DNA of 33,697 bases. It comes from an uncultured Lachnospiraceae bacterium (lineage in GTDB: Bacteria; Bacillota; Clostridia; Lachnospirales; Lachnospiraceae). Where the stretch lies: positions 1-33,697 of the forward strand of contig CANQUA010000037.1 in the NCBI GenBank assembly GCA_947626915.1, read 5' to 3'. The notes under the pieces were generated by a model. That model was given only the letters and a program-made list of their open reading frames with translations, was not told where the DNA came from and did not search any database. The translations under genes were made by a program, and so were the position numbers. Below are positions 1-33,697 of the stretch, piece after piece (within the stretch, counting starts at the first letter, position 1; each line of letters opens with the position of its first letter).

Positions 1-315
1 AGCAACGAGGAACTGATTGCTATTACCAAAGAACTTGCGGATACGCTGCGAAAGAACAAAACGGTTGATTGGCAAAGGCGGGAATCAGCAAGAGCTAAAA
101 TGCGTATGCTCATCAAAAAACTGCTTAAAAGGCATAAATATCCGCCCGAGGGGATGGAAGACGCGGTTCAAACCGTTATGACCCAGTGCGAACTGTGGAC
201 TGATTACACGGATATGGATGAACCGAAACAGAAAATTATTGAGTATTCTTTCCAACCGGAACAAAATTTAAGGATGGTTGCAGAAGAGCCTGTGCCATAC
301 GGGAGTGAAAATTGA
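1..315 (+). CDS. hsdR: Type I restriction enzyme R subunit, C-terminal end (partial)
   Basis: The window opens inside this gene; frame 1 is open from base 1 to the TGA at 313-315, giving the last 104 residues. The segment KNKTVDWQRRESARAKMRML followed by KYPPEGMEDAVQTVMTQCE is the conserved C-terminal helical region of HsdR proteins (DUF3387-type), which contacts the HsdM/HsdS core. HsdR is the ATP-dependent translocase and nuclease subunit that cleaves unmodified DNA; its helicase and nuclease domains would lie upstream, outside the window. An intrinsic terminator follows 6 nt after the stop, so hsdR ends its transcription unit. The ATG at 100 is internal and not a start. Whether the full system is intact cannot be seen here. 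Confidence 0.85.
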   Translation, partial: SNEELIAITKELADTLRKNKTVDWQRRESARAKMRMLIKKLLKRHKYPPEGMEDAVQTVMTQCELWTDYTDMDEPKQKIIEYSFQPEQNLRMVAEEPVPYGSEN

Positions 316-320
316 TTTGT

Positions 321-362
321 AAAAGACCGGGGTGAATCGTTGGATTCTCCCGGTCTTTCTTC
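321..362 (+). terminator. Intrinsic terminator of hsdR
   Basis: A perfect 10-bp stem, AAAGACCGGG (322-331) with CCCGGTCTTT (349-358), encloses a 17-nt loop and runs into a T-rich tract (TTTCTTCT). It begins 6 nt after the hsdR stop. The remaining 140 bases to the next gene are AT-rich and show no further feature. Confidence 0.85.
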
Positions 363-505
363 TACACAATTTCAAACATAGTTCCCAAACACTATTGTCT
401 TTTAATTTATTCTTTCCAGGTTATTCCTCTCTTGTGATTCCAAAAATGTTTCATTCATGCTCTTATAAATATTATGCACTCGCTGCACCGTCTGCACAGT
501 TGTTC

Positions 506-1018
506 CTACGCCTTTCCCATATCAGCTTGCGTCAAATAAACTTTTACTTCTTTTCTTAGCCCATTGCTTATCCGAATTCCGCAATTCATCATAGTTTCTA
601 TACAGGAATCTATTTCTTCGGCCGTTACCAGAGTTTCATCAAATGCCAGGAGAAGGATGCCCAGAGTTCCGGTAATAGGAATACCCATTTGCTGTGCCAC
701 GCGTCTGCCCTTATGCTCATCTACAAGAAGCAGGTCCGCTTCCAGTTCTTCCGCTATTACAATAGCCTCACTTTCCCCCGCGTCCAATCCCGTAACCCTT
801 TGCAGAATACTCACAGACTTTTTTTCGACAACATCCCTTACCCGAACATAAGGACATGACCTGACAGTTTCCGCTTCATCAGCAAATGCACTATTAGAAA
901 CCAACTCCGTAAATACCGCTTGCGGAATGATGATCTCGCCAAACAGCTTCTTTAAGAGTTCCAGCTGTCCTGCTTTAAGCAAAGAAATAATCGGCGTTGT
1001 ATCAGAAATAACTATCAT
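506..1018 (-). CDS. DUF3368 PIN-like nuclease, probable toxin of a TA pair
   Basis: A 170-residue protein starting MIVISDTTPIISLLKAGQ, which is the N-terminus of DUF3368 proteins, a PIN-domain-like RNase family. The acidic residue D6 of the first strand, the VFTELV helix with its glutamate and the LLLVDEHKGRRVA segment carrying a further aspartate fit the PIN acidic metal site. Length is normal for the family (about 150-170). The start codon overlaps the stop of the upstream UPF0175 gene as ATGA, so the two are translationally coupled, and the pair is a common toxin-antitoxin-like arrangement. Target RNA is unknown. There is no clear terminator after the TAG. Function as a toxin is inferred from family and pairing. 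Confidence 0.8.
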   Translation of the reverse strand: MIVISDTTPIISLLKAGQLELLKKLFGEIIIPQAVFTELVSNSAFADEAETVRSCPYVRVRDVVEKKSVSILQRVTGLDAGESEAIVIAEELEADLLLVDEHKGRRVAQQMGIPITGTLGILLLAFDETLVTAEEIDSCIETMMNCGIRISNGLRKEVKVYLTQADMGKA

Positions 1019-1299
1019 ACCGCGTCTTTTCTCCTTGCCATTCTTACTGTCTCAATATCTTTCTCCAAATCAATCTCTGATTCTGTCAGATAATCCAGTC
1101 CCATCCGGCCGTAAAGCACAATCAAATCCAGCTTATGAATGCCGAGAATTTCCGCCGCTTTTCCATGAGAAATCGTACCATCCTGAACATACGGATATAA
1201 AAGCATGGCATTCCGCTTAAGCTGCGCTTCTCCATCCGCCAAAAGCACAAAGGGAACCATCTCTTCCGGAACCGTAATTTCTATCCGTTTCTGATTCAT
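1015..1299 (-). CDS. UPF0175 family protein, probable antitoxin
   Basis: A small protein of about 94 residues in which RIEITVPEEMVPFVLLADGEAQLKRNAMLLYPYVQDGTIS leads into SHGKAAEILGIHKLDLIVLYGRMGL, the helix-turn-helix-like core of the UPF0175 family. These proteins regularly sit upstream of DUF3368/PIN genes and are thought to act as DNA-binding antitoxins. The frame extends to an ATG at 1326, but a strong GGAGGAG site at 1306-1312 stands 6 nt before the ATG at 1299, so 1299 is preferred. The 3' end overlaps the toxin start by 4 nt. A near-consensus promoter lies about 55 nt upstream, so the pair is its own transcription unit and may be autoregulated (inference). Confidence 0.75.
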   Translation of the reverse strand: MNQKRIEITVPEEMVPFVLLADGEAQLKRNAMLLYPYVQDGTISHGKAAEILGIHKLDLIVLYGRMGLDYLTESEIDLEKDIETVRMARRKDAV

Positions 1300-1353
1300 T
1301 TCCTGCTCCTCCAATTCCATTTTCATATATCACCCGGGGCATTTTCTGATTTT

Positions 1354-1572: not shown

Positions 1573-3834
1573 TCAGAAGTCGTCGAAGTCAAAGCTGCCC
1601 AGATCGGCGGCCAGGGCCTCGCTCTCTGCCCCGCTCAGCGCGGCGTTCACCGCCTCGCTGACGGCCTGGCCGTTGAGGCCCCATATTTCTCCCAGATTCT
1701 CCGCCACGGCGTCTTTCTCCCCCGCGGAAAAGTCGGCGAAAGCACGGCGCAGAAACACCAGCGCCCGCTTGAATTCGTTCTCGTCCAGGCCATCCAGGTA
1801 GTCGGAGAGGCTACGCCACAGACCTAACCGGGCGATAAGGGCGTAGCGGTTCCGCTGGGCCAGGCCCTCGAACCACCCGGCCCCCAGATCGGCGGGGACT
1901 CCTCGCGACAAGCGCCGCCTGACCTCCAGATCCAGCCTCTGTTCGCCCAAAGCGCCCCGTTCCAGCAGAATCGCGGCGGCAAGACCGGAGAGCCTGGGAT
2001 TCAAATCGTCCCTCCGGGCCACCTGCTCCAAGGCATCGATCCAGAGCCGGTTCTCCAGAAAATCATGGGCCAGAGCGACGGCGTTGAGGCGCTCCACAGC
2101 TGCACGCACCTCTTTTGCACCGGCATCGTCGCAGGAGCAGGCGCCAGGCAGAATGAGGCAACAGCGCAGGTAGATCTGCCTGATAATCGGCTCCAGAGGA
2201 GCCGGATCCAACCGGCGGATATTTCCGTATTTCAGCACCTCGGACAGCCGCATGGCTGTGGCGGCCAAATCCTCCAAAGAGGCGGCGTCCACCGTCATGG
2301 CCTGCAAAGCCGCCGTGGCGTAGCCCACCGCCCCGGCCATACCGCAGGTGAAGGCGTCTTCAATGACGGCAGCGATATCCGACATGCCGGACGCGCCCTC
2401 CACCCGCTCTTTCATCCGGAAAGAAGCGGCCTGGGCCACAGTGTCTCCCTTGAGGGCGGACTCCACCAGTTCGATCTCCGCCTCCGGCGTCCAGCGGCAG
2501 ACCCAGCGCTCCGCCCAGGTGGCGCTGTCCTGACTGACGGCCTGCTTCTGCCCAAAGGAAACCTCCAGCACCCGCAGGCGGTGGAGGAAGAAAGACCGCT
2601 CCAGATCCAGAAAAGCCGCTTTTTGCGACTTCACCGTCCGGTTCTCCCGCAGATCCAGGGGCAGCTCCTGAGCGGTGAGGCCCCGGTATTTCTCCAGCTT
2701 CAGCTCTTTCATCTGGCGGTAAAAATCCGCCTGGATGCTGGTGCGGCTGACCCCCTCGGGGATAGCGCCTACGGCCGCGCCGATCTCGGTGTCGGCCACG
2801 CCCCTGCTGACAGCGGCGAAAGAACCGCCTCCCAGACAGGTCACTGCCGCGTCCCGCAAATCCCGGAGAGCGGGGACGGATGATCCTCGGAGATGGGCCA
2901 GCTCCCCCGCCAGCCGCGCCGCCTCGATCACCTGGGCGGAGGAGGCCGGATTCCCCTCTTCACGCAGATACCGGGCCACCCGGGAGAGATAGGACCTGGC
3001 GTGGAGCGTGGGATCCCCGGCGTTCAGCCCCTCCCAGATCAGGGAGTAGTAGGCCGGGGCCTTGTTTCCCGCGCCGTATCCCGAGCGAGTGGACAGGCGG
3101 TAGTAGGAATAAGGCATGAGGGTGCTGCTGGCCGACTCCCGGGGCAGATCCTTAAACTCTGCGTCCGTCATGGGCACGGCGGTTTTCAGTCCCTCCACAT
3201 GAAAAGCCCCGGTGACCACGACCATCTTCTCAGGGGCGAAGCCCTCCTGCATCGCCTCCTCGATGGTACGCCGCATATACGCCTCCCGCACCACCGTCTC
3301 GGACCAGTCAGGGCCCTGTCCGCCGGTGAGCGCCCGGAGCCTTTTCCCGAACTCCCCCGCTCCCCGGCGGTAGGCGTCGGGGGCGGCGGTGTGCTCCATG
3401 GTCCGCTCCCAGAACGTTTCGTGGCCGTCCTCGCCGGAATGGGCGTCCAGGGCGGCCCAGGCATCACTCCTATCCCCGGCGTCTGTCTCGTCTGCCTCCT
3501 GCCTGGCCTTTCCGAGAGCCAGAAATACGTCGGATGGCAGATCCATAAAGCGGCACTCCGCCCCATTTTCCCTCGCCCACAAAATGGCCTGATACTCGGG
3601 GGAGTACTCCGCAAAGGGGTATAGGATAGAGCGCACCGGAGCGGCCTGGGTGTAGGCCAGGATCGCAATGGGCGGCACGGTCTCCGGGGCGGCGATGTGC
3701 TCCATCTGCCCGGTCAAGTCCGACGGCCCCTCCACCAGCACCAGTTTCGGCTTCACCTCGTTAAGCAGCCGCCGGAGATGGTATGCCCCGGCGGGGGACA
3801 GGTGACGGATCCCAAAATAGATTGGCTCCTTCAT
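1573..3834 (-). CDS. DUF5682 family protein (YehM-like) of the MoxR/VWA/SWIM cluster
   Basis: A 753-residue protein, close in length to E. coli YehM. The N-terminal domain begins MKEPIYFGIRHLSPAGAYHL and continues with LVLVEGPSD (E35), WERTMEH near 142-148, REAYMRRTIEEA near 183 and MVVVTGAFHVEGL with H212. This layout of an N-terminal GIRH..P, a strand ending in EGP and a late GAFH resembles the fold shared by TraB/GumN, ChaN and erythromycin-esterase-like proteins (inference). The remaining ~500 residues are helical and alanine-rich with no known motif. The ATG at 3834 overlaps the MoxR stop as ATGA and has GGGAG upstream; the longer frame to 3873 would run into the MoxR gene and is rejected. 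It is the last gene of the cluster. Biochemical function is unknown. Confidence 0.8.
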   Translation of the reverse strand: MKEPIYFGIRHLSPAGAYHLRRLLNEVKPKLVLVEGPSDLTGQMEHIAAPETVPPIAILAYTQAAPVRSILYPFAEYSPEYQAILWARENGAECRFMDLPSDVFLALGKARQEADETDAGDRSDAWAALDAHSGEDGHETFWERTMEHTAAPDAYRRGAGEFGKRLRALTGGQGPDWSETVVREAYMRRTIEEAMQEGFAPEKMVVVTGAFHVEGLKTAVPMTDAEFKDLPRESASSTLMPYSYYRLSTRSGYGAGNKAPAYYSLIWEGLNAGDPTLHARSYLSRVARYLREEGNPASSAQVIEAARLAGELAHLRGSSVPALRDLRDAAVTCLGGGSFAAVSRGVADTEIGAAVGAIPEGVSRTSIQADFYRQMKELKLEKYRGLTAQELPLDLRENRTVKSQKAAFLDLERSFFLHRLRVLEVSFGQKQAVSQDSATWAERWVCRWTPEAEIELVESALKGDTVAQAASFRMKERVEGASGMSDIAAVIEDAFTCGMAGAVGYATAALQAMTVDAASLEDLAATAMRLSEVLKYGNIRRLDPAPLEPIIRQIYLRCCLILPGACSCDDAGAKEVRAAVERLNAVALAHDFLENRLWIDALEQVARRDDLNPRLSGLAAAILLERGALGEQRLDLEVRRRLSRGVPADLGAGWFEGLAQRNRYALIARLGLWRSLSDYLDGLDENEFKRALVFLRRAFADFSAGEKDAVAENLGEIWGLNGQAVSEAVNAALSGAESEALAADLGSFDFDDF

Positions 3835-4919
3835 CGGTTCAGCTCCCGGCAGGCGGCGTAGAGCCCTGCCCATTGTTTGCCCCGCTTGCGCATGATATTC
3901 TCCAGGTACTCCTTCCAGGCCAGGCCGTCCTTGTCCTCGTCCTTCACCACGGCCCCCTGGAGACCGGCGGCCAGGTCCTCGTCGGCCACCGTGCCATTGC
4001 CGAAGCTGCCCGCCAGGGCCATGGAACCTGCCAGCAGGGAAATGGCCTCGGCGGTGGACAGCACCCCGGTGGGAGTTTTCAGCTTCTGAGAAGCGTCCAG
4101 GGTCTGGCCGGAGCGCAGTTCCCGAAAGACGGTGCAGACCTTCTCCACAACTTCGTCGGCGGGGAGCTGAGCGTTCAGGTCCAGACTTCCCGCCAGCTGC
4201 TCCACCCGGCTTTTCACAATGTCCATCTCCTCCTCCAAGGTAGCCGGGGCGGGGAGGACCACGATGTTGAAGCGCCGCTTGAGGGCGGCGGACATCTCGT
4301 TGACCCCCTTGTCCCGGGTGTTGGCGGTGGCGATGATGGAGAATCCTTTCCTGGCCGGGACCTCGATGCCAAGCTCCGGGACGCTGACCCGCTTTTCGGA
4401 CAGCAGGGAGATCAGGGCGTCCTGGACCTCGCCGGCGCAGCGGGAGATCTCTTCAAACCTGGCGATGGTGCCCGTCTCCATGGCCCGGTACACCGGGCTT
4501 TTCAGCATGGCCGCCGGGGATGGCCCCTGGGCGATCAGCATGGCATAGTTCCAGGAATATTTAATCTGCTCCTCGGTAGTGCCGGCGGTGCCCTGGATCA
4601 CCTGGGTGGAGTCGCCGTTAATGGCGGCGCACAGGTGCTCGCTGAGCCAGCTCTTGGCGGTGCCAGGCTCGCCGATGAGCAGCAGGGCCCGGTCGGTGAC
4701 CAGGGTGGCGATGGCGATCTCCACCAGCCGCTGATCCCCGATGTACTTGGGCGTGATCAATGTGTCCCCTGCCCTGCCCCCGCAGATGTAGGTCCGCACC
4801 GACCGGGGGGACATGCGCCACCCGGCGGGGACGGGATCCCGCTCCGCCGTGATGAGGGCGTTCAGTTCTTTTTGATACAGTTCCTCCGCCGGGAGGTGCT
4901 GGATATTCTGGTCCGACAT
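3831..4919 (-). CDS. MoxR-type AAA+ ATPase (YehL-like)
   Basis: A 362-residue AAA+ ATPase. Walker A is GEPGTAKS (83-90), the Walker B region is FEEISRC (155-161), sensor 1 is ATANTRD (197-203), and KRRF (214-217) carries the arginine-finger region. These are MoxR-family features; the partners (VWA, SWIM, DUF5682) point to the YehL subfamily of MoxR proteins. MoxR ATPases usually remodel or activate client proteins together with a VWA partner encoded nearby, here the protein at 9018-10202. AGGAGGAGG stands 7-8 nt before the ATG. A 199-nt spacer separates it from the upstream gene, while downstream it overlaps the DUF5682 start by 4 nt. The client is unknown. Confidence 0.88.
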   Translation of the reverse strand: MSDQNIQHLPAEELYQKELNALITAERDPVPAGWRMSPRSVRTYICGGRAGDTLITPKYIGDQRLVEIAIATLVTDRALLLIGEPGTAKSWLSEHLCAAINGDSTQVIQGTAGTTEEQIKYSWNYAMLIAQGPSPAAMLKSPVYRAMETGTIARFEEISRCAGEVQDALISLLSEKRVSVPELGIEVPARKGFSIIATANTRDKGVNEMSAALKRRFNIVVLPAPATLEEEMDIVKSRVEQLAGSLDLNAQLPADEVVEKVCTVFRELRSGQTLDASQKLKTPTGVLSTAEAISLLAGSMALAGSFGNGTVADEDLAAGLQGAVVKDEDKDGLAWKEYLENIMRKRGKQWAGLYAACRELNR

Positions 4920-4951
4920 GGCCGGTCCTCCTCCTACAATAAAGTTGTGGT

Positions 4952-4984
4952 GGTTAGATACCTAACAGCCAGTTAGGACTAACC
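4952..4984. repeat. Inverted repeat in the leader of the MoxR gene
   Basis: GGTTAG, ATA, CCTAAC, AGCCA, GTTAGG, A, CTAACC form a two-part stem (6 + 6 bp) with an asymmetric internal loop and a 5-nt loop. It lies 33 nt upstream of the MoxR start in a 199-nt gap (4920-5118) that is poorer in GC than the genes around it. No U-tract follows on the minus strand, so it is more likely an operator, attenuator or RNA-processing element than a terminator. The same gap holds an isolated AAGGAGGA at about 5031-5038 (minus strand) without a convincing gene behind it. Confidence 0.6.
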
Positions 4985-5118
4985 GTTTTATTACTTAAGC
5001 TGTATAATGGCGGGGCATTGGTGTGACGGTATCCTCCTTGGACCTTTGGGTGTCCGTAAGTAAGCCTGTCAGCCAGCCTTCCATTTGCAGCCGTTCGATT
5101 TACGCAGGTTGGACTGCC

Positions 5119-7065
5119 TTACATGAATTGATCGGTGGTCATAACGGGGGCGTCCGTGATTTTTTCAACGAACGCTTTCAGCATCTCGATCGACCCCATT
5201 ACTCCCCCTGTTCCCAGGAGAACGATGGTCCCATTCTCCGCCAGACGGCAGACTTCCCGGGCCTCGGCCTGCTTGGCGGCCTTGTCCCCGGGGAGCGCCT
5301 GCAAAAATTCCTGGAGCTGCCACAGGCCAACCCGGCCGGTGTTGTTTTGGACCTGCTTCGCGTATTTCACCGCCAGTCCTTCACATTTCTTCCAGCCCAG
5401 ACGGTGCAGGTACGCAAGGTCATAGGCGTAAATCGTTTTCGCTTTCAGGCAGGACTGATAGAAATGTGCTCCGAACCGCTCCCGCAACGCCGGATCGTCC
5501 AGAGGGAAGAATTTCGTCATCCACAAACCGGTCCTGTCTTCCGTATGCATGGAAAGCAGAGCGGTATACCACCGCCTGTCCAGGGGCGCGATGGGCTGCC
5601 GGACCGCGATGATCCTCCCAACAGCCGGGTCGGACACGCTGAACTGGAAGTAGTGGCCCTGCTCCGGGCTCCACCAGAGGCGGGTAAACGCCTTAGAGAC
5701 GATCTCCGCCTTGGGCCGGCCCATCAGCTTGGGCGGGAGCCGCAGGAGGTATTTTGACCGCTCGTAGGCCTCTTCAGAGGAGCAGCGGAGCAGGACGGCG
5801 GTGAGCCCGGCGGCGGCATAGCCGGCGCTGACGGTGTTTTGCAGCTCCTCCGCCAGATCCAGCAGGTCAGGGGCGGGCTCATAGAGGAGCGTCCAGCGCA
5901 GCAGTTCGGCTGCGACCTCGCTGAAAGGCATGAGAGCGCCGGTGTCGACGGCTTTAAACTGGGCCTTTGGCTTGTTCTTGCTGGGCAGGGGGTTGGGCTT
6001 GTTATCCATCACCGGGCCCAGGGCGGCCATACGGCGGTAAATCTCGCAGATTTCCGGGCCGTGCTTACCGGGAAGCAGGCCGAGGCAATCCTGCAGCTGC
6101 TCCAGTTCCTCCTTGCCCAGGTGGGCGTTTTGGTCGGCCTCGAAAGGCTCCAGGCATTTCCCTATATCTTCGGCCACGATCCGGCTGACCGCAGAGGACG
6201 TGGCCAGAGCGGCATAGGAGAGCGCCTGCTTTTTCATCTTCTCGGAGGACAGCCAGAACTCGTTGGCCGCGGGGCAGTCCATCCGGGCCAGGGCGAAGCC
6301 CGCCATGCGCCTGGCGGGGCCTTTCTCCGTCCGGAACAGCTCGATCAGCTTCTCCGCGTTGCCCTCGTCCAGCCGCAGGGCAAACACCAACGCCCCCCGG
6401 ACGTCTTTCTCGGCCTCGGGAATATTTTGGAGGTAGAAATCGTTGGCTTTCGCCCCGGCGATGGCTTCGATGGTCTGCACCCGGCGAACCATGTCCCGCT
6501 TCCCCCTGGGGTCGAAGCCGTCCATCAGCATGGGCAGCACAGGTTCTCCCATGGCGCTGAGCCACTCCCGGGCTTTCTCGGCCAGCTCGCCGTATCCGGC
6601 CCCCAGGGCTTTCACCAGGGCGTCCCGGACACGGTAGTCGTCAAACAGCTCGGGCCGCTGATCGTGGGTCTCCGTGACAAAGGAATACTTTCCGCCGCCG
6701 GAGGTAGTCAGGGCCTCCAGCAGGGGAGCCAGGACGGAGTAGGGCGCATTGGAGAATACAGACCCGCAGGAAGTGATCTCCAGCGGCTCCACCTCGCCGG
6801 GGACGTTCACCGCCGCCTGGGTGCAGAGCACCGCGTCGGCTAATGTGATAGCGTCCAGCAGGTCCCCAGCCCGGTCAGGGCAGGCGGGATCCAGAACGGA
6901 GCGGCAGAGCTGCCCCAGTTTGGCAAACACCGGCGCAGCTTTCTCGAAAGGAGCAAAGCTGTCCATCGCCCGTCTCAGACGGAAGTCTTCGGCGGCCAGG
7001 GCGGCCCCGGCGATGATCGACGCCCGCAGGCAGGCGCGCAGTTCATACAAAGGCGTTAAATCCAT
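5119..7065 (-). CDS. Helical-repeat protein of the MoxR cluster (DUF5691-position gene)
   Basis: A 648-residue soluble protein without signal peptide or membrane segments. Its central part is a series of paired helices: the stretch from about residue 160 to 290 (EKAREWLSAMGEPVLPMLMD, VRRVQTIEAIAGAKANDFYL, VRGALVFALRLDEGNAEKLI) resembles HEAT/ARM repeats, suggesting a scaffold or substrate-binding role. I do not recognise the N- and C-terminal parts. In related clusters of other bacteria a DUF5691 protein occupies this place between SWIM and AAA genes, so it may be a divergent equivalent (inference from order, not sequence). AAGGAGGTGA stands 6-7 nt before the ATG, and the gene begins 14 nt after the SWIM stop, so the two are co-transcribed. 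Confidence 0.65.
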   Translation of the reverse strand: MDLTPLYELRACLRASIIAGAALAAEDFRLRRAMDSFAPFEKAAPVFAKLGQLCRSVLDPACPDRAGDLLDAITLADAVLCTQAAVNVPGEVEPLEITSCGSVFSNAPYSVLAPLLEALTTSGGGKYSFVTETHDQRPELFDDYRVRDALVKALGAGYGELAEKAREWLSAMGEPVLPMLMDGFDPRGKRDMVRRVQTIEAIAGAKANDFYLQNIPEAEKDVRGALVFALRLDEGNAEKLIELFRTEKGPARRMAGFALARMDCPAANEFWLSSEKMKKQALSYAALATSSAVSRIVAEDIGKCLEPFEADQNAHLGKEELEQLQDCLGLLPGKHGPEICEIYRRMAALGPVMDNKPNPLPSKNKPKAQFKAVDTGALMPFSEVAAELLRWTLLYEPAPDLLDLAEELQNTVSAGYAAAGLTAVLLRCSSEEAYERSKYLLRLPPKLMGRPKAEIVSKAFTRLWWSPEQGHYFQFSVSDPAVGRIIAVRQPIAPLDRRWYTALLSMHTEDRTGLWMTKFFPLDDPALRERFGAHFYQSCLKAKTIYAYDLAYLHRLGWKKCEGLAVKYAKQVQNNTGRVGLWQLQEFLQALPGDKAAKQAEAREVCRLAENGTIVLLGTGGVMGSIEMLKAFVEKITDAPVMTTDQFM

Positions 7066-7079
7066 GATAGCTCACCTCC

Positions 7080-8519
7080 TTAATACAGCAGGCGGACAAC
7101 GTCCGCGTCCGTGACAATGCTCAGCGGCTGGATTTTGAGCCGGCGTTCGGCGGCGTCATACCAAAACGCCCCCAGAAGCACCTGATTTTCCAGCAAAGCG
7201 GCGTCGGGCAGAGCAGACAGCCGGGAGATGGTAGGCTCCAGGCCGGGCATATCCCCCAGGGCCACTGCGACGCCGTTTTCATCCTGTACCACCAGAGCGT
7301 CCCCCGCCTTTCCGATACGCCGGAAACGCAGCAGGCTGCAGAGCATGGGATCAGACAGGGTATTTTTCAGGATGTTTTTCGCGTTCCTGGCCTCGGCCGC
7401 CAGGGATGCCGCCGCATAGGCCCGGAGGGCAGCGCAGTCCGCCGCCGTCAGCTCCCCGAAGGCGGCCTCCTCCCAGCGGATCCGCCGGTTGCCCTCGCCG
7501 GGATAATAAACGGCGGTGGGAACCGTTACGGCGCCAAAAACGGTGTCGTCCTGTTTAATGTATTTCAGGGCCTTGAAAGGCCGGTAGTTGCAGGTCACGC
7601 TGATCTCGCCGGTGTCCAGATCCGCCCAGACACCGGTGTCGGTGAACTGGTTCCGGGCCTCGTCGGCGCTGACCCAGAAAGCCAGCTGGGCCAGCCGCGC
7701 GTTTTCCTTACAGAGCCCCAGGGCGGCCAGCTCGTCCAACTTCCACACGCCGCCCAAATCCTCGAAGAGGGCGCTGTCGTCCTGGCCCACGTCGCCGCTG
7801 TCCAGCTTCTGACTCAGGTACTGTTTTGACTTCTTCACCAGCGCCCAAAGACGCTCCAGGGTGTCGATGGCGGCCTCATAGTGCCCGTCGCCGCCGTCAT
7901 TTTGGAAAGCGGAAATCTCAAAAATCAGCTGGTTCAGCAGCGCCTGGGGGCCGGGGAGGTAGTAATCCCCCAGCTGTTTGACCAGATTCCGATAGGTGGG
8001 CAGGGCCGCGCCTCCCATGGAGCCAAGGCCGGCGTTCAGCAGGTCCCGGACCAGCTGCTCGGTCAGCTCCACGCCCTCCAGCTGCTTTTGCAGCTTCTTG
8101 GTCCGGGCGGCCTTATTGACCCTGGGCGGCGTCCTGGGGGCGTCAGGCTCCTTTGGCGCGGCGGCTTTGGCGGCCCGCGCCTCCTTTTTGGCCCGCTTTT
8201 GCAGGATATCCTCGGGAATGGGCTGTACTGCAAAGTCCTTTCCGGCCATGATCTCATAGAGCAGGGCCAGGGAGTGCTTACAGGGAAACTGATGGCTGGG
8301 GCAGGAACAGCGGAACACCGGGGCGGCGGGCTCTAAAAAGTCCGCGGAGGTGATATAGCTGCTCTTGCCGCTGCCGGTACACTCCCCCAGGTAGAACGTG
8401 TCATCCTCGGAGCGTTCCAGCCGGATGAATCCTCCTTTTTGTGATATTTTTCGTCCATTGACGCTGGCCGCCGGGTTGGGGGCCAGGGAGTCGATGAACT
8501 GCTGGGTAATCTCTCGCAC
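7080..8519 (-). CDS. SWIM zinc-finger protein (YehQ-like)
   Basis: A 479-residue protein with a SWIM zinc-binding motif near the N-terminus: RCSCPSHQFPCKH, ligands C71, C73, C80 and H82 (CxC-x6-CxH). SWIM domains bind DNA or protein partners and occur in transposases, SNF2 proteins and the YehQ family. A lysine/alanine-rich linker (about 105-150, KKEARAAKAAAPKEPDAP) joins it to a larger domain of unknown function. The start is a GTG; AGGATG lies 7 nt upstream. A TATAAT box 35 nt upstream suggests its own promoter, separating this gene and those after it from the VWA gene 498 nt upstream. Partner in a MoxR/VWA machine by context; actual ligand unknown. Confidence 0.82.
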   Translation of the reverse strand: MREITQQFIDSLAPNPAASVNGRKISQKGGFIRLERSEDDTFYLGECTGSGKSSYITSADFLEPAAPVFRCSCPSHQFPCKHSLALLYEIMAGKDFAVQPIPEDILQKRAKKEARAAKAAAPKEPDAPRTPPRVNKAARTKKLQKQLEGVELTEQLVRDLLNAGLGSMGGAALPTYRNLVKQLGDYYLPGPQALLNQLIFEISAFQNDGGDGHYEAAIDTLERLWALVKKSKQYLSQKLDSGDVGQDDSALFEDLGGVWKLDELAALGLCKENARLAQLAFWVSADEARNQFTDTGVWADLDTGEISVTCNYRPFKALKYIKQDDTVFGAVTVPTAVYYPGEGNRRIRWEEAAFGELTAADCAALRAYAAASLAAEARNAKNILKNTLSDPMLCSLLRFRRIGKAGDALVVQDENGVAVALGDMPGLEPTISRLSALPDAALLENQVLLGAFWYDAAERRLKIQPLSIVTDADVVRLLY

Positions 8520-8553
8520 AAAACCACATCCTTTCTGCTGACGTACGGTACAT

Positions 8554-8582
8554 ATTATACATCACCCTATCTGAAAGCAAAA
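8554..8582 (-). promoter_or_regulatory. Probable promoter of the SWIM-to-DUF5682 genes
   Basis: TATAAT (8559-8554, minus strand) is a perfect -10 box about 35 nt upstream of the GTG start. The -35 region at 16-17 nt spacing is weak (TTTTGC/TTTGCT), so either the promoter is weak or an activator is needed. Confidence 0.5.
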
Positions 8583-8591
8583 GAGGGTTCT

Positions 8592-8791
8592 GTTAAATTT
8601 CTGCCCGGTAAATGGTTACCGTTCACTCCGCGCCATTCGCAAAGCCGCGCTTACGCGCTTTCCATCGCTTCGCGATTACCTTTGCTCATAAAATGGCGCT
8701 CCCTTCGTCCGTCCATCCAAGAGCAGATATTCGCGCAAGCACGAATCTGCCCCTTGGCTGGCGGACGAGTGAACCGTAGCAGTAAATTTCC
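8592..8791. repeat. Highly structured intergenic element between VWA and SWIM genes
   Basis: An imperfect large inverted repeat bounds the element: AAATTTCTGC (8597-8606) and GTTCACTC (8621-8628) against GAGTGAAC (8767-8774) and GCAGTAAATTT (about 8779-8789). Inside are two branched stems. The first pairs GCGCCATT (8630-8637) and GCAAAG with CTTTGC and AATGGCGC (8692-8699), enclosing two small hairpins (GCGCTTACGCGC and ATCGCTTCGCGAT). The second pairs GTCCG (8707-8711), CCAAG and GCAGATATTCG with CGAATCTGC, CTTGG and CGGAC (8762-8766). No reading frame is credible. It looks like a dispersed clostridial intergenic repeat or a small structured RNA; other copies would lie outside the window. 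Confidence 0.6.
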
Positions 8792-8886
8792 GGCCGGAAC
8801 CATTGCCCGGCAAACGCCGCGTCGGCATGGAGTCAGACAATGCCCAATCCGGGAGGGAACGCCCTGTCTGCCACAGGAAATAAACA

Positions 8887-8923
8887 CAGCGCCCCAGGCC
8901 AGGCGAACTGGCCTGAGGCGCTG
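8887..8923 (-). terminator. Probable terminator of the VWA gene
   Basis: A 16-bp stem (8887-8902 with 8908-8923) closes a 5-nt loop. On the minus-strand RNA it is fully paired with one G-U, has a UUCGC loop and is followed by TGTTTATTT. It is about 95 nt after the VWA stop; a less regular GC-rich hairpin lies directly after the stop at about 8985-9012. Confidence 0.6.
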
Positions 8924-9017
8924 AAATTTCAATGCTTTCTTTACGCCGTACCAGGCGGAACCACCGGCCGGACATCATAAACGAGGCCCCCGCCGCGGCT
9001 CAGCGGGGCGGCCCTGA

Positions 9018-10202
9018 TTAGGAATGAGAAGCGCGGCGAAGCGTTTGAAATTCATTCAGATCCTGTCCCTTCAGCGCCCGCTCCAGCAGCTGGGGCAGCA
9101 GTTCCGGGCTACAGGCAAAAACCGGGATGTCCAGTCCTGCCACTTTCTGAGCCATCTGGGTATCGCAGCAGGGCCTGCCCTGGCCGGAAATGGCCAGCAG
9201 GCACACCACCGTGACGCCGTCCTCTTTCATCTCCCCCAGCCGCCGCAGCAGGGCCGCCCGGTTGCCCCCTTCCTCCAGGTCGGTAATCAGGAAGAACAGG
9301 GTTTTTCGGGGATTCTCCACAAACTTCTGACAGTAGGCCACCGATTTGTCGATATCGGTCCCGCCTCCCAGCTGGAAGCCGAAGAGCAAGTCCACCGGGT
9401 CGGCGCACTGGTCCGTCAAATCCACGATGTTGGTGTCGAAAGCCACCACCCGGGTTTTCAGCGAGGCCATGCTGGCCAGAATGCAGCTCATAACGGAAGC
9501 ATAGATCACGGACTCTCCCATGGAGCCGCTCTGATCCACATCCAGAATAACCGTCCACTTGTTTGCGCCGGCGGCGTTTGTGCGGTCAAAGAAATAAAAT
9601 TTCTCCGGAATGATGGTCCGCCGCGCCGGGTCATAGTGTTTGAGATTTCGGTCAATGGTCCGTTTGTAGTCCAGGGCCGCTGCAGATGGGATGGGAGAAT
9701 GTGTCCGCCGGTTCACCGCCGCCGTCACCGCCCGGCGGATGTCCTGCTCCAGGAGTTTATTGATCTCGTCCACAATTCTCCTGATATAGATTCGAACGCT
9801 CTCCTTGCTGCGCCTGGGAATCTGCTCTTTCAGCATGAGAATGGCAGCGGCCAGATCCAGGTCGGGCTCCAGATTTTCCAGCAGCTCAGGCTCGAGGAGC
9901 AGCTGTTTCAGGCCGCATCGGTTCATGGCGTCCCCCTGAATAACGGTGACCAGATCCCGGTCAAAGAGCGTTCGCACATCACCCAGCCATCGGGCAATCT
10001 GAGGGTTAGAGGGTCCGCGGCCCGCGCCTGCGCCGCTGGGTCCGAAACCTCCGGCATCCGCCCGATTATAGATGGCGGCCAGGGCCTGGTCCATCAGGTC
10101 GAACTCACCGGTGAGTTCCCCGCCGCCCATATCGGAAAACCGCTGCCGGCTGTCTGAACCCAGAATGAGCCGCCAGCGCCGGATGCGGGTCTGGTCGTCC
10201 AT
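9018..10202 (-). CDS. VWA-domain protein (YehP-like), partner of the MoxR ATPase
   Basis: A 394-residue protein with a C-terminal von Willebrand factor A domain. The metal-ion-dependent adhesion site is complete: DQSGS (223-227), threonine T282 in GGGTDID, and D308 in LITDLEEGG. The N-terminal half is helical with a glycine-rich linker near residue 50-65. VWA proteins encoded beside MoxR ATPases act as adaptors presenting a client to the ATPase. The frame extends to an ATG at 10229, but GGGAGA stands about 7 nt before the ATG at 10202, and the resulting length fits YehP (about 380). It is the first gene of the cluster; the right copy of the 23-bp repeat lies 28 nt upstream of the start and so may form part of its leader or promoter. 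Confidence 0.85.
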   Translation of the reverse strand: MDDQTRIRRWRLILGSDSRQRFSDMGGGELTGEFDLMDQALAAIYNRADAGGFGPSGAGAGRGPSNPQIARWLGDVRTLFDRDLVTVIQGDAMNRCGLKQLLLEPELLENLEPDLDLAAAILMLKEQIPRRSKESVRIYIRRIVDEINKLLEQDIRRAVTAAVNRRTHSPIPSAAALDYKRTIDRNLKHYDPARRTIIPEKFYFFDRTNAAGANKWTVILDVDQSGSMGESVIYASVMSCILASMASLKTRVVAFDTNIVDLTDQCADPVDLLFGFQLGGGTDIDKSVAYCQKFVENPRKTLFFLITDLEEGGNRAALLRRLGEMKEDGVTVVCLLAISGQGRPCCDTQMAQKVAGLDIPVFACSPELLPQLLERALKGQDLNEFQTLRRASHS

Positions 10203-27292: not shown

Positions 27293-28101
27293 GTAGAAAA
27301 ACCTCCGTCCACGACAATATTCTGGCCAGTGACATAGGCGGCCGCATCGGATGCGAGGAAAACCACCGCTCCGAGCAGATCGCAGCCCATCCTGCCCATC
27401 CGCCCCAGCGGCGTGCGGGCGGAGTAGCCGCTCACAAACGCTTCGCTCAACTCAACCTTATCAAAGCCGCCGGGAGAGATACAATTGACCGTCACTCCGA
27501 ATGGCGCCATAAACGCGCCAAGGTCGCGCGTCATACCGATGACGCCGCCCTTGGCGGCAGCGTACTCCACGGACTGTTCCATCTTGTTGGCCTGATGGTA
27601 CATATCGCGGTTTCGTCCCACGATGCCCGCAATGGAGCCTAGATTGATGATGGTTCCCTTGCCCTGCTCCTTCATATATCCGCAGGCTGCGCGGCAGCAG
27701 AAAAGGGAGCCGGTAAGGTTCGTGTCAATCATATTCTGGATTGCGGCGGGGTCGCGCTGCAGGAAATTGCATTCGCCCGCCCCGGAGCCTCCGCCCGCAT
27801 TGTTGATCAGGATATCGATGCGTCCATAAAGTGCGATGGCTTTTTTCATCAATGTTTCGCAGCTGGAATAATCTCGTTGGTCGAGCGCCAGCCCAGAAGC
27901 CTCCGCACCCGTTTCCGCATGCAGCCTACTGGCGGCATCCTCGGCGCGCGCGGCGTCCCGCGAGGTGATGACGATGCGACAGCCGTATTCGGCCAGCGCC
28001 TGCGCGATATCCCATCCAAGACCGGCCGCGCCTCCCGTGACGATTGCGGTTTTCCCCGTCAATTCGAACAGTTTATGTACAGATTTTATCATATTACTCA
28101 T
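27283..28101 (-). CDS. Short-chain dehydrogenase/reductase
   Basis: A 272-residue classical SDR. TGGAAGLG (22-29) binds the cofactor, NNAG is at 100-103, and the catalytic residues S156, Y180 and K184 are in place (YAAAK). C-terminal ISPGGFDKVELSEAF and YVTGQNIVVDGGFS are family signatures; closest types are gluconate 5-dehydrogenase-like sugar enzymes. AGGAGG lies 14 nt before the ATG with a second GAGAAGAGA closer, so the start is fairly safe. It overlaps the next gene by 10 nt. Substrate unknown, probably a sugar or aldonate. Confidence 0.88.
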   Translation of the reverse strand: MSNMIKSVHKLFELTGKTAIVTGGAAGLGWDIAQALAEYGCRIVITSRDAARAEDAASRLHAETGAEASGLALDQRDYSSCETLMKKAIALYGRIDILINNAGGGSGAGECNFLQRDPAAIQNMIDTNLTGSLFCCRAACGYMKEQGKGTIINLGSIAGIVGRNRDMYHQANKMEQSVEYAAAKGGVIGMTRDLGAFMAPFGVTVNCISPGGFDKVELSEAFVSGYSARTPLGRMGRMGCDLLGAVVFLASDAAAYVTGQNIVVDGGFSTCK

Positions 28102-28158
28102 TCTCTTCTCATTTTCCTCCTCATTTTTTTCTGATCTGATAAAAAGCAGAATCCTCTA

Positions 28159-28629
28159 TCACATATTGCTTTCCAGAATCTTTACCACAACTTTCTTAAC
28201 TTTGGAAGACGCTCCATTGGCTGCCTTCGGTTTATGGCCGTCCCACGGAAAGAAAACTATACAGTCGCCGCTATGGCACGGCACCCGGACACCCGGACAG
28301 GAGTTATCAAACAGGATCGCATCTTTCTCCGGAATATAAGGGCCGGATGGAATCAAGGCAGAAACCGGCGCATAAGTCAGGAGCTCTGTTCCGCTGACGA
28401 TACACTGTATATCGGTATATTTTTTATGAGCCTCATAGACCGCCTCTTCCCAAGGAACAGTGGTGTAGGACATGACGCTGGCATAAACCGCCTTCCCGTC
28501 GATCTCATAACGGCCGTCGGCCAGATTGGCAAGATCGCTGGATTTAAGCCATTCAACAGCCTTGACGTATCGGTCCCCTATCCCCAATGCTTTGTAAAAA
28601 TCGAGATTTTCTATCAAGTCTAAAATCAT
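28159..28629 (-). CDS. YhcH/YjgK/YiaL family protein
   Basis: A 156-residue cupin-like protein of the YhcH/YjgK/YiaL (DUF386) family. The signature EAHKKYTDIQCIVSGTE (66 onwards) and FFPWDGHKPKAA (H132) carry the metal ligands. Members act on sugar anomers or acidic sugars (for example the sialic acid anomerase NanQ) and occur in catabolic operons for sugar acids. AGAGGAGA stands 5 nt before the ATG. It begins the right-hand half of the catabolic genes, 57 nt upstream of the SDR. The 400-odd bases upstream contain only a degraded-looking reading frame (28808-29038). Confidence 0.88.
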   Translation of the reverse strand: MILDLIENLDFYKALGIGDRYVKAVEWLKSSDLANLADGRYEIDGKAVYASVMSYTTVPWEEAVYEAHKKYTDIQCIVSGTELLTYAPVSALIPSGPYIPEKDAILFDNSCPGVRVPCHSGDCIVFFPWDGHKPKAANGASSKVKKVVVKILESNM

Positions 28630-28807
28630 GCTTTCTCCTCTGCTTTTTTCTTATTTATCGTTTCCTGTTTTCACTTCTCATTCCCTTTGGTTTTCCAATG
28701 AGGTTTCCATGCGCTTTTCCCATGATTTTTTTACGCAAATTTCTCGCACATCCTGCTGCCTCCCTCCTTTTCCGTCCGACGCCCAGGCACCGCAACAAAA
28801 GGCATCT

Positions 28808-29038
28808 TTATTTCCCCAGTTTCGCCGGGAACGTCTTCTTGGAATGGTTCTCACCGTTTTCATCCAAAATCTTCTCCACATAGCAGACAACGCTGCTTAA
28901 GCCAGCCTTCATATCGTTCAATTGGGTGCGCAGCTTGAACTGGCCCTCGCTGAACACATCTGCAATGATAAGGATTGCCAGCTCAGCCGTATAGCCCGTA
29001 TCACTCCTCGCGGCCTTCTTATTCCTCCTCTTTTTTGT
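28808..29038 (-). pseudogene. Open frame without start codon, possible gene remnant
   Basis: On the minus strand a frame of about 75 codons runs to a TAA at 28808-28810 and reads RSDTGYTAELAILIIADVFS, EGQFKLRTQLNDMKAGLSSV and VCYVEKILDENGENHS, which looks protein-like (mixed amphipathic helices) rather than random. A good AGAGGAGG site stands at the right distance upstream, but the codon there is AAG, not a start; no ATG, GTG or TTG fits. I do not recognise the family. It may be the remains of a small gene with a mutated start, or a displaced fragment. The stretch 28630-28807 shows nothing. Confidence 0.35.
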
Positions 29039-29045
29039 CTTTTAT

Positions 29046-30338
29046 TTAGCAGTTTAGCAATTCGTCCATTGGTTTCCCATCGGCTCCAGATAACTCCACC
29101 CCCAAAAGCTTTGCATAAGTGGGAGCCTGATCAATCAGTCTGCCTTTGGAAACTATTACGTTTTCTTTAAAGTCCGGTCCTTTTGCCAGGAATGTTGGCT
29201 GTGGTCCTTTTGACGGCAAATAACCGTGCGTTGCGCGGCCGGAACGATAATCTGAAACATTAAAATTAGATACTAGCGGGCGTTTATAACCATCACTGAA
29301 ACCAGTATATCCATCTCCCTCCAGAACGAAAGAGAATGATCCGCTCAGATGATATTGTTGTTTCGTTTCCTCTGTTTTAAATACCTGAGTAAATCCGTAG
29401 ATACCTTCCGCAGCCATATCATTTAATAATTTAAAAACCCTATTATAAAGCTCCTGATCAGATGAATCCTTTAAATACACCATTACAGACATTCCGGCGG
29501 CCAGACACCACGCATCCCAATCTTTAATGGTTCCGTCTTCGTTCTTCTGAATCAGTCCATGATCAGCCAGAATCACATTAGGATTAAGAATTCGTTTGCT
29601 TTCCATTTGCCCATGGTCACTGGTTAAAACCAGGTTCGTATTTTCAAGCTCTCCAATATCCTCTACAGCCTGCATAATCTCCCCCAGCCATCTGTCCGTC
29701 TCTTCAACTCCCAGCCGCACCTGCTCACCGAAAACGCCATATCTATGACGATAAGCGTCAATATTGGCCGGATGAAGAAACAACACATCCGGTTTACACT
29801 TACGGATCACATCACAGGTACATTTGATGACAAAGCGGTCGCGGAAAGGATGCTGCATGATTCCTACCGGATCTATATGCTTTTCAATGATTTCTATCAT
29901 CTGATTGTTGGATCCCATCCGACCGTAAGCCTCTCTGACCGTGTCTTCCGGCGATTGAGGCCAATATTCATCAATCAGATAATCAATATCGGGATGATTT
30001 CCTGTCACCGGCCAAAAAATAGCCGCTGTGCTGTAACCCCCCTTTTTGGCAGCGTGAAAAATATCATTTTTCCACTTTACTGCCTCATAATCCCAAATCC
30101 ACGGATTCGGCTTTTTTCCAGGAGCTAATTGGAAGTTGCCGCTGATTCCATGCTTATCGGGATACACACCTGTTGACATAGTGGTATGGCAAGGATAGGT
30201 AACTGTCGGATATACAGACTCTACCTGTTCCACCATGCAGCCACCCTCCAAATATTTTTTATAATTGGGAAGTGTTTTGAAATATTCCACATCCTCCCAT
30301 ACAAAGGCATCTGCTGAAAACACAATTAATTTTTTCAT
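29046..30338 (-). CDS. Type I phosphodiesterase / nucleotide pyrophosphatase (NPP-like)
   Basis: A 430-residue alkaline-phosphatase-superfamily enzyme. The metal ligand D10 is in IVFSADAF; the nucleophile is T47 in YPTVTYPCHTTMSTGVYPDKHGI (written in two parts: YPTVTYPCHTTM, STGVYPDKHGI). Further ligands are in HPANIDAYRHRYG, LTSDHGQME and the histidine of THGYLP. NPP enzymes cleave phosphodiester or pyrophosphate bonds, for example in nucleotide sugars or phospholipid head groups. No signal peptide, so cytosolic. AGGAAAGAGGAA stands 5-10 nt before the ATG. It lies 37 nt after the MBL lipoprotein in the same operon as the sugar permeases, suggesting a phosphodiester-containing substrate. Confidence 0.88.
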   Translation of the reverse strand: MKKLIVFSADAFVWEDVEYFKTLPNYKKYLEGGCMVEQVESVYPTVTYPCHTTMSTGVYPDKHGISGNFQLAPGKKPNPWIWDYEAVKWKNDIFHAAKKGGYSTAAIFWPVTGNHPDIDYLIDEYWPQSPEDTVREAYGRMGSNNQMIEIIEKHIDPVGIMQHPFRDRFVIKCTCDVIRKCKPDVLFLHPANIDAYRHRYGVFGEQVRLGVEETDRWLGEIMQAVEDIGELENTNLVLTSDHGQMESKRILNPNVILADHGLIQKNEDGTIKDWDAWCLAAGMSVMVYLKDSSDQELYNRVFKLLNDMAAEGIYGFTQVFKTEETKQQYHLSGSFSFVLEGDGYTGFSDGYKRPLVSNFNVSDYRSGRATHGYLPSKGPQPTFLAKGPDFKENVIVSKGRLIDQAPTYAKLLGVELSGADGKPMDELLNC

Positions 30339-30375
30339 AAATTCCTCTTTCCTATAATTTATATATTGCCGTCAC

Positions 30376-31782
30376 CTATTCTTCTCCATAAGCCGACCAT
30401 ATCTCCACCTCATCTGGCGAAAACGGAAGACTGAAAACGTAGATCTCACGACCTGCAACATAAGTATACTCGACGCACTCTTCCAGCACCTTGTTATAAG
30501 ACATGGCTTTATTAGTTGTATAAGACATATTGTTCGTTGCCCACAATGCCACTTTAGGTGAAATTGCCTGATTCAGCTCTACAGTCGCTCCCCTGTGTCC
30601 ATGATGAGCCACCTGCAAAATTCCAGCTTGCAATGTGTTTTTGCTATAAGCAGTCGTCAAAACCTCAGAAGAAATGGGACCACAGTCACCCAAATGCAAA
30701 ATCTTCTCACCATTCATTGTCAGAGTAAATACCAAAGAAGTACAATTATATCCAATATTATCAATAAAGGATGCCTTCACCGGATATAGTTCCCAGGTAT
30801 ACAGGATTTCCAACACACCATCTGCAAGATAAAAGATCTGGCCCGGATGAGCCTCTACCAGTTCAGCTCCCAATTTTTCTACTGCCTCCAGATATCTGCC
30901 CGGATTTTTTTCATTGGCCTTTGTAGATAATACTACTTCTTTCGAAGGCACATTGCTGATAAATTGCTTCACCGTCACACGATCGGCATAGGTGTCTGCA
31001 AAATGGAACAATGCCATCACATGGTCGTTATGAGTATGAGTAATCAACCATGCGGTAATCACAATATTCTCTGGATCCGGCGCCAATTTTACCAATGTCT
31101 CATAAATAGTGTCAGCACATTCCTGAGCATTATGTCCTCCATCAATGATGAAAAAAGTTCCGTCAGACAAACGGTAAATCATACAAAGTCCGGAATTTTC
31201 CGCACCATTATAATTTGTGGATACCAGGGTCATTAAGGGATCACAAACCTTTATATATTTCTCTGGTGAAGCACCGGGCAGGTCACCTGACGGTTCCGCT
31301 ACGATTCTCACAGAATAATCTAGCTCCGGCGTATAAAGAAGCGTCACAGTAACCTGATCATCCGTCCACGTAGCATAGTAGTTATCATCAATCTGATTTT
31401 CTGCATAAAACTGAAAGCCACTTTCTTTCAGGAGAAGTCCATATGTCTTAAGTTCATCTGCAGAATTGCTCTGACAGATTAGCATCTCAGCTCCATCTCC
31501 CATATTCTGAATCTTTATAAACTCCCCATTTTGATAAATCGGCAGAACTGCAAACAGACTACCCTTTTCAGGAATATAAGCCGGCTCCGCCTCATCTTCC
31601 ACCCTTTCCGCAGCTTCAGTTTCAACAGTTTCCGATATCTCTTCCATTTGCAATTCAGCTTCTGATAAATATTCTGTTTGACTGTTACCATATATTTGAC
31701 TCTTACTACAGGCAGAAAGTGTTCCTAATATCGCTGTCGCTGATAAAACTATCATAGAAATCCTCATTATACTACCTCTCAT
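30376..31782 (-). CDS. Metallo-beta-lactamase-fold lipoprotein of the sugar locus
   Basis: A 468-residue lipoprotein: lipobox LSAC with C25 (C20 if the ATG at 31767 is used), a Glu-rich linker to about 70, an extra domain of ~100 residues, and a metallo-beta-lactamase domain with IDGG (213-216), the metal motif THTHNDH (248-254), LHLGDCG and VAHHGHRGATVEL. It belongs to the ComEC-like hydrolase group but lacks the C-terminal Cys/His module of the other lipoprotein at 19246. Anchored outside the membrane, it could process the substrate before uptake. AAGGAG precedes the ATG at 31782 and AGAGG that at 31767; both are plausible. It starts 12 nt after the LplC-type gene. Confidence 0.85.
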   Translation of the reverse strand: MRGSIMRISMIVLSATAILGTLSACSKSQIYGNSQTEYLSEAELQMEEISETVETEAAERVEDEAEPAYIPEKGSLFAVLPIYQNGEFIKIQNMGDGAEMLICQSNSADELKTYGLLLKESGFQFYAENQIDDNYYATWTDDQVTVTLLYTPELDYSVRIVAEPSGDLPGASPEKYIKVCDPLMTLVSTNYNGAENSGLCMIYRLSDGTFFIIDGGHNAQECADTIYETLVKLAPDPENIVITAWLITHTHNDHVMALFHFADTYADRVTVKQFISNVPSKEVVLSTKANEKNPGRYLEAVEKLGAELVEAHPGQIFYLADGVLEILYTWELYPVKASFIDNIGYNCTSLVFTLTMNGEKILHLGDCGPISSEVLTTAYSKNTLQAGILQVAHHGHRGATVELNQAISPKVALWATNNMSYTTNKAMSYNKVLEECVEYTYVAGREIYVFSLPFSPDEVEIWSAYGEE

Positions 31783-31794
31783 CCGCTTCTCTCC

Positions 31795-33617: not shown

Positions 33618-33697
33618 TTCCCTTGTATGATGTATTTGTAACCGAATACACCACTTTTCCTTTCTTTTTATTGATATTGTGGTTTAATACAATTCAG

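What the first reader, a model, noticed from the sequence alone, without database searches (positions are those of the whole stretch)
1573..10202. Complete MoxR/VWA/SWIM/DUF5682 five-gene machine beside restriction and TA genes
Seen: VWA, SWIM, helical-repeat, AAA+ and DUF5682 genes in one orientation with short gaps or overlaps at most junctions; MIDAS, Walker and SWIM residues are all intact. Known: YehL is a recognised MoxR subfamily and E. coli yehLMPQ has the same components, with no established function. Inference: the neighbours (hsdR, DUF3368/UPF0175) and cassette-like borders suggest a defence or biological-conflict role, with DUF5682 as the effector and the VWA/SWIM/helical proteins as adaptor and sensor.
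Basis: partly seen in the sequence, partly recalled or inferred. Interest (0 to 1): 0.75.

Follow-up and report, generated by a model that had tools for sequence, protein, structure and literature searches.

The report
Motor-enzyme machine with changeable sensor arms
A gut bacterium carries a five-gene set, related to a little-studied one in E. coli, that looks like an ATP-driven machine pairing a probable enzyme with a fast-changing recognition protein; its job is unknown, and the idea that it fights viruses is not supported by its neighbours.

Summary
The five genes are real and intact: VWA, SWIM, HEAT-like, MoxR/YehL-type ATPase and DUF5682. They form a conserved module. All 65 type-A loci with enough flanking sequence hold all five, usually in the order SWIM-HEAT-MoxR-DUF5682-VWA. 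The window alone (1 of 101 loci) has VWA in front, followed by a terminator-like hairpin. E. coli yehLMPQ is a second subtype without a detected HEAT homologue.

The defence inference rests on hsdR and toxin-antitoxin neighbours. They differ in base composition and recur beside none of the 100 other loci. The E. coli DUF5682 gene is in 5284 of 5426 genomes. My reading: a receptor-gated remodelling/hydrolase machine, purpose unproven.

The parts
9018..10202 (-). VWA (CoxE-type) protein; ORF open from 10229, likely start at 10202; MIDAS residues present
   Evidence: PF05762 143.3 bits; 202 bits to E. coli YehP; translation
8887..8923 (-). Terminator-like hairpin between VWA and SWIM (16 pairs, 12 G-C, T-rich tail)
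   Evidence: longest stem of the 15 sites listed; consensus scan only (15 found, 10.7 expected)
7080..8519 (-). SWIM zinc-finger protein, 479 aa, GTG start
   Evidence: PF04434 22.9 bits, cut-off 19.6; C71, C73, C80, H82 invariant in 52 sequences
5119..7065 (-). HEAT/ARM-like helical repeat protein, 648 aa: better conserved N-half (about 1-250), variable C-half; putative recognition subunit
3831..4919 (-). MoxR AAA+ ATPase, YehL-like; Walker A GEPGTAKS
   Evidence: PF07728 130.8 bits; 250 bits to YehL
1573..3834 (-). DUF5682 protein: N-terminal TraB/Tiki-like domain (about residues 11-240 of the 766-aa ORF opened at 3873) plus C-terminal helical part; putative hydrolase effector

Best explanation
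A receptor-gated, ATP-driven remodelling and hydrolase machine. The HEAT protein is the recognition arm: its conserved N-half docks on the shared machine and its variable C-half binds a target, and some genomes carry 2-4 arms on one machine. The VWA protein and the MoxR ring form the motor/co-chaperone pair that grips and remodels the bound complex. This releases or feeds DUF5682, whose N-terminal TraB/Tiki-type domain probably hydrolyses a peptide or ester bond. The SWIM protein is a second, constant adaptor. Shown by computation: components, conserved order, co-occurrence, predicted folds, invariant residues and the variability pattern. Inferred: that DUF5682 is catalytically active, that the HEAT C-half binds targets and its N-half docks, the order of events, and the biological purpose (stress or quality control against conflict).
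Confidence: 0.42

Rival explanations
1. A maturation chaperone: VWA and MoxR act like NorD/NorQ or CoxE/CoxD and insert a metal or remodel a client, and DUF5682 is the client or a metal carrier (like ChaN), not a degradative effector.
For: The VWA is a CoxE-family protein (143 bits). MoxR-VWA pairs of this kind activate metal-cluster insertion (PMC7159879 section 8; start of the NorQD abstract in the listing). yehM was among genes mutated in copper-exposed E. coli (PMC12409786, two passages; [quoted passage not shown]
Against: No metalloenzyme is evident among the 25 largest neighbour clusters (by eye). A generic maturation factor does not explain the variable, amplified HEAT protein.
Confidence: 0.22
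2. An anti-phage defence system with HEAT proteins as phage sensors and DUF5682 as killer or target-cleaving effector.
For: Accessory in the genus (10 of 25 others). Two Desulfovibrio copies nest next to the window (SH-aLRT 98-99, quick tree, long branch, odd composition). Variable, amplified recognition subunit. Resembles MoxR-vWA conflict systems in composition. A few generic PADLOC ATPase families are slightly more frequent beside the module than in controls, e.g. AriA PDLC02980 in 4 of 140 and 4 of 137 against 2 of 136.
Against: PADLOC gives no hit for DUF5682, SWIM, HEAT or VWA; MoxR only at E 0.002-0.02. PADLOC family totals are not higher beside the module (111 and 169 against 158). hsdR/TA neighbours not conserved. 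E. coli yehM in 97% of genomes, chromosomal. Rare in phage collections (1 of 50,697 records; none confirmed in IMG/VR).
Confidence: 0.2
3. Ordinary housekeeping stress or protein-quality machine without a conflict role; HEAT varies only because it tracks fast-changing host clients.
For: Core in E. coli. Recurrent neighbours look like housekeeping genes (by eye). In six Lachnospiraceae loci a short gene follows VWA at -20 to 60 nt; in L051 it is ClpS, followed by a ClpA-like protein.
Against: Patchy in Bacillota. The six loci lie in one clade of seven (SH-aLRT 94), so they may be one event.
Confidence: 0.16

Closest known systems
E. coli yehL-yehM-yehP-yehQ (YehL subfamily of MoxR)
   Same: MoxR, DUF5682 and VWA homologues and a SWIM-motif protein side by side; profile comparison of the two DUF5682 types gives E 2.6e-71 over 719 columns
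   Different: HEAT and type-A SWIM profiles hit nothing in the 30-kb stretch; a DUF4132 protein (YehI) and a WGR protein (YehF) lie upstream; order M-D-V-Q; present in 97% of E. coli genomes
MoxR-vWA ternary conflict systems (Kaur et al. 2020, PMC7159879)
   Same: MoxR plus vWA pair with further components; MoxR scores 27.1 bits on bpMoxR (cut-off 27)
   Different: No VMAP, beta-propeller or effector-associated Pfam domain found in the five proteins; SWIM, YehL and DUF5682 do not occur in that paper's main text
TraB/Tiki/ChaN/Ere superfamily
   Same: Predicted fold of DUF5682 residues 11-236 and the H24 / E48 / H225 pattern
   Different: Fused to a helical C-terminus and built into a MoxR operon; lacks the ExH Glu of RRSP-type enzymes
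NorQ/NorD and CoxD/CoxE
   Same: MoxR plus CoxE-type VWA
   Different: No metalloenzyme in the module; extra SWIM, HEAT and DUF5682 proteins

Membership tests
Tiki/TraB superfamily (DUF5682 N-domain) | Common alpha/beta core fold | tested here: met
Tiki/TraB superfamily (DUF5682 N-domain) | GxxH, Glu and second His at strand ends | tested here: met
   H24, E48, H225 invariant in 11 of 11 (both types) and 63 of 63 (type A); G21 in 8 of 11 and 62 of 63. They lie in or just after strands 18-22, 44-50 and 217-222. Motif description recalled, and seen in two TraB-like proteins
Tiki/TraB superfamily (DUF5682 N-domain) | Score over a curated family cut-off | tested here: inconclusive
   Only the ChaN model, E 0.01, in 1 of 11 members
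RRSP/Ere-type 2His/2Glu Tiki enzymes | Glu of the ExH motif | tested here: not met
   Position 22 is I or V in 11 of 11 and 63 of 63 sequences; 2His/2Glu from PMC6254334 passages; mapping is my inference. So it is not filed with this branch
Tiki/TraB superfamily (DUF5682 N-domain) | Hydrolase activity | not testable with these tools
   needs biochemistry
YehL subfamily of MoxR | Similarity to YehL, beside DUF5682 and VWA genes | tested here: met
   250 bits to YehL; gene context
YehL subfamily of MoxR | Closer to YehL than to RavA or other MoxR subfamilies | not tested
   no tree of MoxR subfamilies was built
MoxR-vWA ternary conflict systems | MoxR plus vWA pair | tested here: met
MoxR-vWA ternary conflict systems | VMAP, beta-propeller or effector-associated third component | tested here: inconclusive
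   no such Pfam hit in the five proteins
Known anti-phage system | Match to a described defence family | tested here: not met
   PADLOC: none for four proteins, weak AAA hits (E 0.002-0.02) for MoxR
Known anti-phage system | Location in defence islands | tested here: inconclusive
   277 of 501 neighbour proteins scanned: 111 and 169 families, against 158 for 136 of 302 control proteins; no per-gene calls; controls are contig starts from a different set of mostly same-genus genomes
NorQ/CoxD-type metallo-chaperones | CoxE/NorD-type VWA partner | tested here: met
   PF05762 143.3 bits
NorQ/CoxD-type metallo-chaperones | Metalloenzyme client in the operon | tested here: inconclusive
   none evident among the 25 largest neighbour clusters (by eye); DUF5682 itself might bind metal

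The most novel reading that the evidence does not exclude
A bacterial machine with interchangeable receptors: one MoxR-VWA motor and one TraB/Tiki-fold hydrolase serve one to four HEAT receptors, whose docking halves are held alike within a genome while their target-binding halves diversify. It would be a specificity-swapping system for targeted hydrolysis, possibly immune-like, with E. coli yehLMPQ as a core-genome cousin.
Probability: 0.3. Interest if true: 0.85.

Novelty: new variant of a known kind. Interest (0 to 1): 0.55.

Why it matters
I found no established function for the YehL branch of MoxR, yet its DUF5682 gene sits in 97% of complete E. coli genomes. A predicted hydrolase fold for DUF5682 and a variable recognition subunit turn 'function unknown' into direct tests: which bond is cut, and what does each HEAT arm bind. 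It also shows that a defence label drawn from hsdR/TA neighbours was misleading here.

Tried and rejected
Rejected: defence by neighbourhood. The PADLOC comparison is coarse: family totals, not gene counts; 277 of 501 test and 136 of 302 control proteins were scanned; controls are not matched. Some generic families are slightly commoner in the test sets (mad3 5 and 5 against 3; AriA PDLC02980 4 and 4 against 2), and one neighbour matches NsnB at E 1.3e-89. In 15 other same-genus genomes, hsdR (PF04313) is found in 1 of 6 with the module and 8 of 9 without; kinship not corrected, not pursued.

Rejected: HEAT protein equals DUF4132/YehI (hhalign probability 1.9%). The SWIM proteins of the two types align only over 62 columns (probability 49%), and the type-A SWIM profile does not hit YehQ.

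Rejected: phage-borne cassette. One of 50,697 phage records matches, an unannotated faecal contig marked UNVERIFIED. The IMG/VR scan confirmed none of 16 pattern matches, but used only two short patterns. 37 of 72,556 plasmid records match; of the 20 listed several exceed 1 Mb.

Corrected on the way: the first gene call (33) missed genes hidden under longer antisense ORFs; one search replaces it. From L042 seemed to lack the downstream VWA; one search finds it, so the VWA-first order is seen in the window alone (1 of 101 loci). The type-A count includes three contigs fetched twice (L022/L081, L028/L094, L029/L088); drop L022, L028 and L029. Searches use the first gene call, so hidden genes could be missed there. 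The notes carry counts from before these corrections (one search has 11 of 25 where one search shows 10 of 25 others). The PDB sequence search with the DUF5682 profile found nothing. Foldseek on whole DUF5682 listed helical proteins. Rfam found nothing. Positive selection on HEAT was not seen. The small ORF 8676-8978 has no family and no homologue in the other loci.

Literature, as far as searched: DUF5682 in 0 papers of the library; none of the 10 listed of 923 papers joins MoxR with Tiki/TraB. Of yehM/P/Q papers (20 of 71 listed) I read passages of two: strain tables naming yehQ, outcome not seen, and a copper-evolution list naming yehM.

Full report
What was checked. The five reported genes exist at the stated place, in one orientation and without stops. 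Pfam confirms VWA_CoxE, SWIM, AAA_5 and DUF5682; the helical protein has no Pfam hit. The likely starts are 10202 for VWA and 3834 for DUF5682, the latter overlapping the MoxR stop by 4 nt. VWA is separated from SWIM by 498 nt with a 16-pair terminator-like hairpin at 8923-8887, so the 'five-gene operon' is here perhaps VWA plus a four-gene unit. The window is an entire contig of a 3.18 Mb draft genome.

The module. 69 had room for the whole module. Of these, 65 are type A, and all 65 hold SWIM, HEAT, MoxR, DUF5682 and VWA: 55 once each in the order S-H-M-D-V, five with two HEAT calls, three with three, one with four, and one with S and H swapped. Three of the 65 are second fetches of the same contig. 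Four of the 69 are type B (MoxR-DUF5682-VWA, then a YehQ-like protein; in three with a DUF4132 protein between). The other 32 loci, the window included, had too little sequence on one side. The window alone has VWA in front.

Co-occurrence. In the genus, SWIM and DUF5682 occur in the same 11 genomes (own plus 10 of 25 others); in the 19 same-genus genomes searched for HEAT it occurs in the same 9. Of the four DUF5682 genomes outside the genus, one has a partial type-A SWIM hit (G072) and three have none (G038 and G067 are type B; the copy of G041 lies on a short contig). G044 has only a broken SWIM relic without DUF5682. Distribution: DUF5682 passes its cut-off in 8 of 398 genomes drawn from the phylum, own genome included. 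The quick tree of 77 DUF5682 proteins places two Desulfovibrio copies next to the window (SH-aLRT 98-99), on a long branch and with flagged composition. In E. coli the homologue is core: 5284 of 5426 genomes, 5166 with at least 80% of the gene, 5289 of 5291 places on chromosomes.

The HEAT protein behaves like a recognition arm. In 47 complete loci, median pairwise identity is 0.78 MoxR, 0.68 VWA, 0.56 DUF5682, 0.45 SWIM and 0.28 HEAT; HEAT is lowest in 1079 of 1081 pairs, and its residues 1-250 are better conserved than the rest. Nine of 73 loci carry 2-4 full-length tandem copies. In 20 of 20 within-locus pairs the N-half is more alike than the C-half; between loci the same holds in 297 of 300 sampled pairs (of 3721). 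For two genomes (L104, L106), two pairs of copies match across genomes in the C-half (71% and 67%), while copies within a genome share 21-46% there but 63-80% in the N-half. This fits old duplicates whose N-halves stay alike and whose C-halves keep separate identities. dN/dS stays below 1 where it could be computed, so this is fast change, not proven positive selection. The model is an almost wholly helical solenoid resembling HEAT/ARM proteins.

Context. The hsdR fragment (1-315), DUF3368 (506-1018) and UPF0175 (1015-1326) are real, though the last two score just under their Pfam cut-offs (PADLOC PDC-S70 supports both). They have no homologue among the called genes of the 100 other loci. They are 43% G+C, the module 62.6%, five control stretches of the genome 55%. 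The largest neighbour clusters look like transporters, YebC, an aldo/keto reductase, PlsX/Rnc and, in one clade, ClpS-ClpA (names by eye, ClpS and the AAA+ protein confirmed in L051). PADLOC family totals do not exceed control.

Mechanism. In known MoxR-vWA pairs the vWA domain captures a peptide of a substrate and the ATPase remodels it (PMC7159879 section 8). I propose that HEAT picks the target, VWA-MoxR remodels the complex, and DUF5682 acts as hydrolase; SWIM is a constant adaptor. These roles are inference. YehL is one of seven named MoxR subfamilies (PMC3893208 passages). The module is a new variant of that known but unexplained kind.

Noticed in passing
window 1-1326: Contig starts inside an hsdR C-terminus (T1RH-like_C 83 bits), followed by a UPF0175/DUF3368 pair (PADLOC PDC-S70, best E 1.9e-44), at 43% G+C, unlike the module.
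   Followed up: partly
L051, L055, L056, L057, L068, L092: A short gene (ClpS by Pfam in L051) follows VWA at -20 to 60 nt in six Lachnospiraceae loci of one clade of seven; a ClpA-like gene comes next.
   Followed up: partly
G044:C35:192325-193633: SWIM gene in three pieces, one with an internal TAG, in a genome without DUF5682: perhaps a relic of a lost module.
   Followed up: no
genomes G001-G015: hsdR (PF04313) in 8 of 9 same-genus genomes without the module but 1 of 6 with it; kinship not corrected.
   Followed up: no
window 8887-8923: Terminator-like hairpin after VWA; the window is the only one of 101 loci with VWA in front.
   Followed up: partly
L096, L106, L112: Desulfovibrio (L096, L112) and Pseudoflavonifractor (L106) operons with 2-4 full HEAT genes in tandem.
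   Followed up: yes
window 28001-33697: Right end of the contig is also about 43% G+C, with a metallo-beta-lactamase-fold protein, a phosphodiesterase and transporter-like genes (by eye).
   Followed up: no
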